NCBI RefSeq assembly: GCF_016907845.1
Contig: NZ_JAFBCS010000001.1
Location: 372,001 to 436,000, forward strand
Length of the DNA stretch: 64,000 nt
Reading direction: 5' to 3'
From: Arcanobacterium pluranimalium
Lineage (GTDB): Bacteria > Actinomycetota > Actinomycetes > Actinomycetales > Actinomycetaceae
The notes below the pieces were generated by a model, which was not told the origin of the DNA, made no database searches, and saw only the letters and a list, made by a program, of their open reading frames with translations. The translations under genes were made by a program, and so were the position numbers. Of the stretch, positions 5,801 through 8,329 are shown piece by piece (the first letter of the stretch is position 1; each line of letters opens with the position of its first letter).

Positions 5801-6286
5801 TTATAAGAACTTGTAGTAAGCAAAAACTATACAAACGATGATCCAGAAAAAGACGCTAAAGCCGCCGCCGCCTTCCTCTTTTTTACCTTTTTTTGAATTT
5901 TGGCCGGGCTTTTTCTTGGGATTCTTTCCGGCGTTTTGTTGCCTTTTCTCATCGGCGTCTTGAATAGCACCGATAAGGCCGCCGGAGAAATAGCTTCCTT
6001 TGCTGAGCTGGGCACGGATATCGGCAACCGAAACTTTCTGGGATTCGCTCTGGGTGGTGTGAGATTCTTGCTGTGCAAAGCGTGAGTCTTGAGCATGAGA
6101 GCTTTGGCCATGTGAACGAGGATTAGATTTGGCCGACTTGCGAGCATACTTATTCTTTTGCTTGTTCAATTCACCAGCTAAAAAAGGAGAGCTGAGATCT
6201 TCGGTGCGGCGCGCAGCGCTGCGGTAACGTTGAGTTCCCAACCATGCTGACCCTGATGTGTTGTCAGAATAGAATGCTGGACTCAT
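5801..6286 (-). CDS. Hypothetical tail-anchored protein
   Basis: A 161-residue protein not recognised as a named family. Residues 1-80 are polar, low in hydrophobics and rich in Ser, Gln, Lys and Arg, and look disordered. Residues ~85-112 ('VSVADIRAQLSKGSYFSGGLIGAIQDADEKRQQ') may be a short amphipathic element. A strongly basic Lys/Gly stretch (~116-140) then leads into one C-terminal hydrophobic helix (FSVFFWIIVCIVFAYYKFL), with no signal peptide. The topology suggests a membrane-tethered cytoplasmic protein. It precedes the MATE gene by 21 bases. The ATG at 6286 has GGAGCATTCC in front. Confidence 0.6.
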   Translation of the reverse strand: MSPAFYSDNTSGSAWLGTQRYRSAARRTEDLSSPFLAGELNKQKNKYARKSAKSNPRSHGQSSHAQDSRFAQQESHTTQSESQKVSVADIRAQLSKGSYFSGGLIGAIQDADEKRQQNAGKNPKKKPGQNSKKGKKEEGGGGFSVFFWIIVCIVFAYYKFL

Positions 6287-6979
6287 GGAATGCTCCTTGG
6301 GTGAGAAGTTCTACCTCGTACGTTATCAAAGAATGACGAAAAGAATCGTAATCCGATGCCAATATTATATAGGTGAAAGTGCAATAGGAAACGATTTTTT
6401 GGTGAATTTTGGGCGGGAAAGTTTGGGAAGAAAAGTGACGAAAATGATTTGTAGATTTTGTTGTTCACTGTTCTTTTGTGGCACAGCTATGAAGTAGTTA
6501 CTTTAAGTTTTCTTGCAGTTTCAAAATTGATGTGAAGAGAAATTTTCAAAAAGATATCCACTGCTGTGGAGAAAATTGGGGACGAAAACAAGCCGTTTTC
6601 CATAAACAATCCACAAGTGTGAAAAGAAAATTAGAACTTGTGGAGAAAAGGGGTGTGTCCTCCACGGTTTATCCACGATTTCCACGGCGTGTATCCACAA
6701 AATTTCTTAAAGAATCCACAGGTGGATAAAAAGTTGATTTGACAAATGTGGATTCAATCCACCTTTTCCACTAGCTGCTGTATCGATAAATATGCGTCAT
6801 TATGCAATGAGGTTGAGATGTGACGTTGGGGTTTTGCGCAAAAATTGCCGTAAATAAACCGTGTCTACATTATGTGTTATTCAACTGCTACTGAACATGG
6901 AAAATTGCCGATGGTGTGGTCTAGGCACGGTGCGATTCCTCAATAAGTAGGGCATACTTGATACGTTGAGGAGGAATAT
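6287..6979. other. 693-bp AT-rich intergenic region before dnaB, with DnaA-box cluster
   Basis: No gene is visible. The segment separates two divergent transcripts. Its right part (6554-6772) carries about a dozen TCCAC-core sequences on both strands that match or nearly match the DnaA box (see separate entry). The left part (6340-6560) is AT-rich. GAGGAGG at 6969-6975 is the Shine-Dalgarno of dnaB. Confidence 0.8.
6554..6772. other. DnaA-box cluster (oriC-like) upstream of dnaB
   Basis: Nine-base DnaA-box-like sites, on the strand named: TTCTCCACA (- at 6565-6573 and - at 6639-6647, both fitting the relaxed actinobacterial box), CAATCCACA (+6607), TTATCCACG (+6669), GTATCCACA (+6691), GAATCCACA (+6712 and -6747), TTATCCACC (-6721). 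Weaker TCCAC cores lie at 6554, 6658, 6678, 6755 and 6764. That is about 13 sites in 220 bases, in both orientations, next to AT-rich DNA. Such clusters are known at replication origins and at DnaA-titrating or DnaA-regulated loci. The dnaA, dnaN, rpmH and gyrB genes that mark the usual actinobacterial oriC are not in the window, so a role in dnaB control or DnaA titration is as likely as a true origin. Confidence 0.7.
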
Positions 6980-8329
6980 ATGTCTAACGTTTCTACGCAT
7001 GGTTTTGATCGTGTGCCACCCCAAAATATTGCTGCTGAAGAATCTGTGCTGGGTGGCATGCTGCTCAGCAAGGACGCGATCGCAGACGTCGTGGAAATCC
7101 TCAACGTTCAAGATTTTTATAAGCCGCAGCACGCCCGCATTTATGAGGTAATTCTTGATCTTTTTGCGCGTGGTGAGCCAGCCGATGCAATTACAGTTGG
7201 AAATGAACTGCAGCGTTCCGGTGATCTAGACCGAATCGGCGGATTCTCTTTCCTGCACACGCTGGTACTTTCGGTTCCAACCGCCGCAAATGCTGCCTAC
7301 TACGCCAATATAGTCAAAGATCAAGCTAAACTGCGTGCGTTGGTAGAGGCGGGCACGCGCATTGTGCAGCTTGGTTACAATACCGACGGCGGAGACGTGC
7401 AGGGTCTGCTCGATATGGCACAGGCAGAAATGTTTGCCATAACGGAATCACACGTCAAAAATGATTATGCCGATTTGCATGAAATTGTGCCCTCGGTTTT
7501 AGAAGAAATCGAAAAGAATGCGGCACGCGATGGTCAGTTAGCTGGCCTTGAGACTGGATTTACTGATCTGGACAATGTTTTATCAGGTTTGCGACCTGGG
7601 CAGATGATTATTGTGGCTGCCCGACCAGGTATGGGTAAATCCACCTTGGCGATGGATTTTTGCCGTACTGCCGCAATTAAGAATGGGCGTCCAGTCGCTT
7701 TCTTCTCGTTGGAAATGAACCGCACCGAATTGGTGATGCGTGCTTTAGCGGCAGAATCAGATATTTTTCTCAACAACCTCATCAAAGGCGATCTCAAGCA
7801 AGACCAGTGGCAGCGGATTCTTGAAACGTGTGAGCGGCTCGATAAAGCCCCACTCATCGTTGACGACTCGCCAAATCTGACCATGACGGAGATTCGAGCC
7901 AAAGCGCGCCGTCTGCGTCAACAAAATCAGATCGAACTGATCGTTATCGACTATCTTCAGCTGCTGACCTCAGGTGGGCGTACGCCTGAATCGCGTCAAC
8001 AGGAAGTTTCGGAGTTTTCACGCTCTATCAAGCTGCTCGCCAAGGAACTCGATATTCCTATCATTGCGGTTGCGCAGCTCAACCGAAACCCGGAGCAGCG
8101 TGCCGATAAGAAACCGCAAGTGGCCGACTTGCGTGAGTCTGGTTCGCTTGAGCAGGACGCCGACGTCATCCTGCTCATCCATAGGAAAGACGACGACGGC
8201 TCACCGGACATGCCGCCGTCGGAAATTATCATCGGCAAGCATCGTGCTGGACCTACAGGCTCGGTGGAACTTATGTTTCAAGGTAACCGCGCCCGGTTCT
8301 CCAACTTTGGTGGCAGCGGAGATTATTAA
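6980..8329 (+). CDS. dnaB: Replicative DNA helicase DnaB
   Basis: Hexameric 5'-3' helicase that unwinds DNA ahead of the replisome and binds primase through its N-terminal domain. At 449 residues it is a normal, intein-free DnaB. The N-terminal domain (~12-115) begins 'PPQNIAAEESVLGGMLLS'. The RecA-like domain (~170-449) has Walker A ARPGMGKST at ~213-221, 'FFSLEM', Walker B 'LIVIDYLQLL' (~311-320), 'AVAQLNR' and the terminal 'KHRAGPTG.VEL.F'. The ATG is fixed by GAGGAGG 5 bases upstream. It lies near rpsR-rplI, the usual actinobacterial neighbourhood, but here four minus-strand genes separate them. Confidence 0.97.
   Translation: MSNVSTHGFDRVPPQNIAAEESVLGGMLLSKDAIADVVEILNVQDFYKPQHARIYEVILDLFARGEPADAITVGNELQRSGDLDRIGGFSFLHTLVLSVPTAANAAYYANIVKDQAKLRALVEAGTRIVQLGYNTDGGDVQGLLDMAQAEMFAITESHVKNDYADLHEIVPSVLEEIEKNAARDGQLAGLETGFTDLDNVLSGLRPGQMIIVAARPGMGKSTLAMDFCRTAAIKNGRPVAFFSLEMNRTELVMRALAAESDIFLNNLIKGDLKQDQWQRILETCERLDKAPLIVDDSPNLTMTEIRAKARRLRQQNQIELIVIDYLQLLTSGGRTPESRQQEVSEFSRSIKLLAKELDIPIIAVAQLNRNPEQRADKKPQVADLRESGSLEQDADVILLIHRKDDDGSPDMPPSEIIIGKHRAGPTGSVELMFQGNRARFSNFGGSGDY

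What the first reader, a model, noticed from the sequence alone, without database searches (positions are those of the whole stretch)
6554..6772. Dense DnaA-box cluster directly upstream of dnaB
About 13 TCCAC-core sites on both strands in 220 bases, several matching the actinobacterial DnaA box at 8 of 9 positions, beside AT-rich DNA. The canonical actinobacterial origin lies between dnaA and dnaN, neither of which is in the window. The cluster could be a second origin-like element, a DnaA-titrating site, or a switch tying dnaB expression to DnaA levels. That last idea is attractive because DnaB loading depends on DnaA.
Basis: partly seen in the sequence, partly recalled or inferred. Interest (0 to 1): 0.75.

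Follow-up and report, generated by a model that had tools for sequence, protein, structure and literature searches.

The report
Conserved DnaA-binding cluster controlling dnaB
The 220-base patch before the replicative-helicase gene dnaB carries 13 likely binding sites for DnaA, the protein that starts chromosome copying; almost all actinobacteria checked carry such sites at the same place, so it is most likely a built-in link between DnaA and helicase supply rather than a second origin.

Summary
Window 6554-6772 holds 13 TCCAC cores (9 plus strand, 4 minus), five matching TTATCCACA at 8 of 9 positions. It is the densest such cluster in the 526 kb (25%) of the genome I sampled, denser than oriC. 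The genome is an Arcanobacterium (2.10 Mb, one contig). Its GC-skew switch and dnaA-dnaN lie about 43 kb away, so a second origin is not supported.

The cluster is a phylogenetic footprint: 77% of the columns of its core are identical in three species, against 17% in the DNA on either side. Cores are spaced at about 10.5 bp multiples, as at oriC. Upstream of dnaB, 114 of 119 Actinomycetia genomes have at least 3 cores in 600 bp; TCCAC outnumbers every permuted core at least threefold. Nineteen non-actinobacterial dnaB genes show no enrichment.

A published study (PMC7738170) found DnaA bound upstream of dnaB in M. tuberculosis in vitro and M. smegmatis in vivo, and a DnaA mutant that binds less there under-expresses dnaB. 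I therefore read this as a DnaA-dependent control region of dnaB, probably activating (confidence 0.6). A DnaA titration or activity-control element is the main rival. It is a new member of a known kind; I found no report of its class-wide conservation in the papers I could search.

The parts
6554..6772 (.). Cluster of 13 DnaA-box-like TCCAC sites (9 on +, 4 on -)
   Evidence: 13 observed vs 0.62 expected; the densest place in 526 kb sampled
6554..6720 (.). Conserved core of the cluster (9 boxes: 6554+, 6565-, 6607+, 6639-, 6658+, 6669+, 6678+, 6691+, 6712+)
   Evidence: 77% of columns identical in three Arcanobacterium species vs 17% at 6287-6493 and 17% at 6773-6925
6554..6573 (.). Face-to-face box pair ATATCCACT / TTCTCCACA (starts 11 bp apart)
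   Evidence: a +/- pair 11 bp apart recurs in 16 of 35 Actinomycetaceae regions
6576..6605 (.). Conserved non-box stretch TTGGGGACGAAAACAAGCCGTTTTCCATAA, possibly holding a degenerate DnaA site (TGGGGA on +, i.e. TCCCCA)
   Evidence: CGTCCCCA in 11 of 35 family regions vs 0.7 expected. That DnaA binds it is inference
6639..6647 (-). DnaA box TTCTCCACA (8 of 9)
   Evidence: 74 bp after the 6565 box; two minus-strand boxes about 75-76 bp apart recur in the family
6669..6677 (+). DnaA box TTATCCACG (8 of 9)
6685..6720 (+). Conserved 3' half: CGGCGT + GTATCCACA (6691) + AAATTTCTTAAA + GAATCCACA (6712), boxes 21 bp apart
   Evidence: ++ boxes 21 bp apart in 14 of 35 family regions; ACACGCCG in 14 of 35 vs 1.6 expected
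6721..6772 (.). Less conserved boxes 6721-, 6747-, 6755+, 6764+
   Evidence: 44% of columns identical in three species
6738..6744 (+). TTTGACA, candidate -35 element just downstream of the conserved boxes
   Evidence: TTTGAC[AT] lies 25-26 bp after the start of the last conserved box in 5 of 10 Arcanobacterium genomes. No matching -10 was found; the scanner called no sigma-70 promoter
6926..6979 (+). Conserved dnaB-proximal block with GCATACT (6952) and the ribosome-binding site; possible core promoter
   Evidence: 78% of columns identical in three species. Promoter role is inference
6980..8329 (+). dnaB, replicative DNA helicase
   Evidence: PF03796 8e-99, PF00772 8e-36; TIGR00665 above cut-off
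6340..6553 (.). AT-rich flank (67% A+T), mostly not conserved; the short element TACTTTAAGT near 6499-6508 is

Best explanation
The cluster is a DnaA-binding control region of dnaB. DnaA assembles cooperatively on helically phased boxes, as it does at oriC, and sets the rate of dnaB transcription, most likely as an activator. Helicase supply would then follow the level or ATP state of the initiator that loads it. Shown here: the boxes, their excess over chance, their conserved spacing, and their presence upstream of dnaB across the class. Shown by others in mycobacteria: DnaA binds upstream of dnaB, and reduced binding goes with lower dnaB expression. Inferred: that DnaA binds this site in Arcanobacterium, the sign of the effect, and which promoter it acts on.
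For: (1) 13 cores vs 0.62 expected. (2) Footprint: 77% three-species identity vs 17% on both sides. (3) Class-wide at dnaB: TCCAC 724 vs 62-230 for the 19 permuted cores; >=3 cores in 114 of 119 genomes; 8 cores in all 19 non-actinobacterial dnaB loci, no enrichment. (4) Core spacings repeat at about 10.5 bp: R = 0.61 own, 0.76 genus, 0.45 rest of family, 0.39 outside the family (0.61 at 11.0), against jittered-position null means of 0.04-0.15; oriC shows the same (0.50-0.55). (5) The cluster stays by dnaB while upstream genes differ: rplI in a Mycobacterium-like genome, MATE in another class member, MATE with or without an extra ORF in Arcanobacterium. (6) PMC7738170: five regions strongly bound by DnaA in M. 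tuberculosis include the one upstream of dnaB; ChIP-seq in M. smegmatis finds its homologue; DnaA I282T binds less there and uniquely under-expresses dnaB. (7) A TTGAC -35-like element sits 25-26 bp past the start of the last conserved box in five Arcanobacterium species.
Against: No DnaA binding or transcription data exist for this organism. The dnaB promoter is not mapped, and the scanner found none. The stretch between the cluster and the dnaB-proximal block drifts in sequence and length, so there is no fixed geometry to that block. Thirteen boxes is more than a simple activator needs. dnaB also stays within about 20-85 kb of dnaA in most genomes where I compared positions, so gene-linked and origin-distance-linked roles are hard to separate; in G046, where dnaB lies 268 kb from dnaA, the boxes are gone.
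Confidence: 0.6

Rival explanations
1. The cluster mainly controls DnaA itself: it titrates DnaA, or like datA or DARS sets its nucleotide state, and is doubled soon after initiation because it lies near oriC. Its position beside dnaB would be inherited synteny.
For: More and denser boxes than oriC. Ordered, helically phased layout more elaborate than a simple promoter needs. Usually 20-85 kb from dnaA. Variable distance to the dnaB-proximal block. Boxes lost where dnaB lies far from oriC, G046.
Against: It follows dnaB through neighbour changes and is kept in G004, where dnaB is about 156 kb from dnaA. In M. tuberculosis weaker DnaA binding here goes with lower dnaB expression (PMC7738170).
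Confidence: 0.27
2. A second or back-up replication origin.
For: Dense boxes beside AT-rich DNA, with oriC-like phasing.
Against: GC skew is negative at 0-310 kb and positive from 346 kb to about 1385 kb, so the switch is at dnaA-dnaN, not at 378 kb. The AT-rich flank is not conserved (17-47% three-species identity). No dnaA or dnaN adjoins it.
Confidence: 0.03
3. The sites bind a protein other than DnaA that recognises TCCAC.
For: None of the 13 sites is an exact TTATCCACA, and conserved non-box elements exist (TTGGGGACG, CGGCGTG, ACTTNAAGT).
Against: TATCCACA and GTGGATAA are the most enriched 8-mers in the family regions (30 and 29 of 35, 1.4 and 1.2 expected); relatives carry exact TTATCCACA in the same cluster; DnaA binds the mycobacterial region (PMC7738170).
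Confidence: 0.04

Closest known systems
DnaA-binding region upstream of dnaB in M. tuberculosis (Rv0057) and M. smegmatis (PMC7738170)
   Same: Same gene, same side, DnaA boxes. A Mycobacterium-like genome in my set (G125; its DnaB scores 406 bits over 196 residues against 2R5U, from memory the M. tuberculosis DnaB N-domain) has TTGTCCACA, TAATCCACA and TTCTCCACA 286-362 bp upstream of the PF00772 domain start
   Different: 13 cores here against 3-6 in that family (f22) in my set; extra conserved spacer elements; binding and expression not tested here
DnaA-bound dnaB upstream region of Caulobacter crescentus (Hottes 2005, as cited in PMC7738170)
   Same: DnaA binds upstream of dnaB
   Different: Different phylum, not compared in sequence here
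oriC of the same genome (dnaA-dnaN)
   Same: Same box type and about 10.5 bp phasing
   Different: Fewer boxes; sits at the skew switch; different box order and spacing
datA / DARS of E. coli and DnaA-box clusters outside oriC in Streptomyces and B. subtilis
   Same: Box clusters outside oriC (from own knowledge)
   Different: No IHF or Fis analogue identified; no biochemical test; those loci are not defined by dnaB

Membership tests
DnaA-bound dnaB control region of actinobacteria | Cluster of DnaA boxes in the intergenic DNA just upstream of dnaB | tested here: met
DnaA-bound dnaB control region of actinobacteria | Conserved at the same place in relatives | tested here: met
   114 of 119 genomes with >=3 cores; footprint of 77% vs 17% identity
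DnaA-bound dnaB control region of actinobacteria | DnaA binds it | not testable with these tools
   Shown for mycobacterial counterparts only (PMC7738170)
DnaA-bound dnaB control region of actinobacteria | Binding changes dnaB expression | not testable with these tools
   DnaA I282T correlation in M. tuberculosis only (PMC7738170)
oriC (chromosomal origin) | Lies at the GC-skew switch | tested here: not met
   the switch is between about 310 and 346 kb; the cluster is at 378.6 kb
oriC (chromosomal origin) | Conserved AT-rich unwinding element beside the boxes | tested here: not met
   6287-6493 is 17% and 6494-6553 is 47% identical in three species
oriC (chromosomal origin) | Autonomous replication | not testable with these tools
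   Needs a plasmid assay
datA / DARS-like DnaA-activity element | Ordered box array with conserved spacing | tested here: met
datA / DARS-like DnaA-activity element | Stimulates DnaA-ATP hydrolysis or ADP release with a nucleoid protein | not testable with these tools
   Biochemistry needed
datA / DARS-like DnaA-activity element | Not tied to one gene | tested here: inconclusive
   Follows dnaB through neighbour changes, but dnaB itself stays near oriC; lost in G046

The most novel reading that the evidence does not exclude
The site is an ancestral actinobacterial DnaA-control element: an ordered, oriC-like DnaA nucleoprotein platform kept within tens of kilobases of oriC. It senses DnaA to drive dnaB and also buffers or resets DnaA after initiation, a two-way initiator-helicase circuit conserved across the class.
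Probability: 0.2. Interest if true: 0.75.

Novelty: new member of a known kind. Interest (0 to 1): 0.5.

Why it matters
How actinobacteria control initiation is less well understood than in E. coli or B. subtilis; to my knowledge no datA or DARS counterpart is established there. A DnaA-box platform at dnaB in nearly every genome checked, with a fixed internal layout within the family, gives a concrete and deletable element for testing whether initiator activity sets helicase supply, and whether the site feeds back on DnaA. It also suggests that the mycobacterial DnaA site at dnaB, and perhaps the one at crgA, are old features of the class rather than mycobacterial oddities.

Tried and rejected
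The listing of one-mismatch boxes stops at 100 of 578 places. A first pass over relatives forgot to reverse-complement minus-strand loci and seemed to show patchy conservation; corrected. No sigma-70-like promoter was found. One sub-threshold Rfam match (rliF, 26.9 bits vs gathering 60) is treated as chance. The genome-contig scan returned one actinobacterial relative, Arcanobacterium bovis, and 26 other loci, 19 of which served as outgroup. A separate ACTTNAAGT element is enriched mainly in Arcanobacterium; its role is unknown. Gene distance could not separate dnaB control from titration, because dnaB stays near dnaA. Paper searches cover open-access PMC only, so absence of a report on class-wide conservation is weak evidence of novelty.

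Full report
What is there. The window lies in a 2,095,799-bp single-contig genome. Its DnaB matches Arcanobacterium bovis DnaB at 99%. dnaB is at 6980-8329. The 219 bases 6554-6772 carry 13 TCCAC cores, 9 on the plus and 4 on the minus strand; five 9-mers match TTATCCACA at 8 of 9 positions and none is exact. In 526 kb of this genome (the window, 62 kb around oriC and 20 spread stretches) the core occurs 2.8 times per kb, so 0.62 are expected; the Poisson chance of 13 or more is about 2e-13. No other place in that sample comes near. The next are 7 cores at 283.5 kb, 6 at 318.4 kb, and 5 each at 335.3 kb (oriC) and 337.2 kb (upstream of dnaA).

Where the origin is. dnaA is at 335,480-337,147 on the minus strand, with an ORF of the size and position of dnaN next to it at about 333.9-335.1 kb. 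Sampled GC skew is negative from 0 to 310 kb, near zero at 310-346 kb, positive from 346 to about 1385 kb, and negative again from 1470 kb. The origin is thus at dnaA-dnaN, about 43 kb from the cluster, and the terminus is near the antipode. Together with the lack of conservation in the AT-rich flank this argues against a second origin.

Footprint. Aligning the dnaB upstream region of this genome with two close relatives, G008 and G009 (DnaB 99% and 94% identical), gives two conserved blocks in otherwise drifted DNA: 6554-6720 (77% of columns identical in all three) and 6926-6979 beside the dnaB start (78%). 6287-6493 and 6773-6925 are each 17%. Within the block, box columns are 81% identical and the DNA between boxes 73%, so non-box stretches such as TTGGGGACGAAAACAAGCCGTTTTCCATAA are also held. 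The last four boxes (6721-6772) are less conserved (44%).

Across the class. Regions upstream of dnaB were taken from 119 Actinomycetia genomes. In the last 600 bp TCCAC occurs 724 times; the 19 other arrangements of the same five letters occur 62-230 times. At least 3 cores are present in 114 of 119 genomes, at least 4 in 107, mean 6.1. Nineteen dnaB loci from other phyla hold 8 cores in all, no more than the permuted cores. One mycobacterial-type genome (G125) was recognised by its DnaB matching PDB 2R5U at 406 bits over 196 residues; that 2R5U is the M. tuberculosis protein is from my own knowledge.

Layout. In the 35 Actinomycetaceae regions the same spacings recur: a face-to-face pair 11 bp apart in 16, same-strand boxes 11 or 21 bp apart in 14 each, 84 and 105 bp in 11 each, and two minus-strand boxes 75-76 bp apart. 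Pair distances are concentrated at a period of about 10.5 bp: R = 0.61 for the window's own cluster (p = 0.004 against positions jittered by up to 8 bp), 0.76 for the genus, 0.45 for the rest of the family and 0.39 for genomes outside it (0.61 at 11.0 bp); none of 1000 jittered sets reached the three group values. Relatedness inflates the group values, but the own-genome value and the outside-family value do not rest on the genus. The dnaA-dnaN regions show the same period (0.50-0.55). This fits DnaA assembling on one face of the helix at both places.

Linkage to dnaB. The gene next upstream varies: a MATE gene with or without an extra 161-residue ORF in Arcanobacterium, no MATE match in G003, rplI in the mycobacterial-type genome, a MATE gene in G073. 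The boxes stay beside dnaB. But dnaB stays about 20-85 kb from dnaA in most genomes where both lie on one contig or the record is complete, so gene linkage and origin distance are largely confounded. In G004, at about 156 kb, the boxes are kept; in G046, at 268 kb and without rplI or MATE nearby, they are gone. One loss does not decide between the readings.

Published evidence. PMC7738170 mapped DnaA binding in M. tuberculosis in vitro. [quoted passage not shown] ChIP-seq in M. smegmatis found homologues of the same five. [quoted passage not shown] The authors note that Caulobacter DnaA also binds upstream of dnaB. This is the closest known counterpart and the main ground for proposing activation.

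Other clusters in this genome. The 318.4-kb cluster lies between a crgA-like gene and a rhomboid gene followed by a peptidyl-prolyl isomerase gene (the family matches are clear by E-value but below NCBIfam's curated cut-offs), the place that corresponds to Rv0010c-Rv0011c (from own knowledge, Rv0011c is crgA and Rv0009 is ppiA). A plus/minus box pair 22-23 bp apart recurs downstream of crgA in several Arcanobacterium genomes; the M. tuberculosis site is described as a palindrome of two boxes. The 283.5-kb cluster lies between nrdH and a Fur-family gene. Four of the five dense places in the sample thus have counterparts among the five mycobacterial DnaA regions.

Reading. The best-supported mechanism is DnaA binding cooperatively to the phased boxes and controlling dnaB transcription, probably positively. 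A TTTGAC[AT] element 25-26 bp past the start of the last conserved box in five Arcanobacterium genomes may be the -35 of the promoter concerned, but no convincing -10 follows and no promoter was called. The large number of boxes, the oriC-like layout and the nearness to oriC leave open that the site also, or mainly, acts on DnaA itself. No experiment on this organism exists. The kind of element is known; its reach across the class and its ordered layout appear unreported in the open-access papers I could search, which is weak evidence because subscription papers are not held.

Noticed in passing
L014:8310-8650 (G000:C1 about 318.3-318.65 kb): A second DnaA-box cluster (6-7 cores, one exact TTATCCACA) between a crgA-like gene and a rhomboid gene, at the place that corresponds to the M. 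tuberculosis Rv0010c-Rv0011c DnaA site, which PMC7738170 says has no obvious counterpart elsewhere. A +/- box pair 22-23 bp apart recurs in relatives.
   Followed up: partly
L074:13370-13720 (G000:C1 about 283.4-283.7 kb): Seven TCCAC cores between nrdH (nrdHIE operon) and a divergent Fur-family gene; possibly a DnaA-controlled ribonucleotide reductase operon. NrdR-box-like sequences seem to lie separately near L074:13255-13330.
   Followed up: partly
window 6499-6508 and relatives: A palindrome-like element ACTTNAAGT upstream of the boxes in several Arcanobacterium and related genomes, enriched about 11-fold over the genome background; unknown role.
   Followed up: partly
window 6576-6605: Strongly conserved non-box stretch TTGGGGAC...GCCGTTTTCC inside the cluster; perhaps a weak DnaA site or the site of a partner protein.
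   Followed up: partly
L249 (G046:C1:355000-374000): In this genome of the same order dnaB lies 268 kb from dnaA, away from rplI and MATE, and its upstream DNA has no box cluster; a natural test case for why the cluster exists.
   Followed up: partly
window 5801-6286 (-): 161-residue ORF with a C-terminal hydrophobic segment and no Pfam or NCBIfam match, divergent from dnaB; found in G008 and partly in G035, not in G009.
   Followed up: no
L053 (G027, dnaB upstream): The boxes lie about 1 kb upstream of dnaB; the DNA between holds repeated short segments (recurring ORF fragments such as SGKCVRWAAPDGCS).
   Followed up: no
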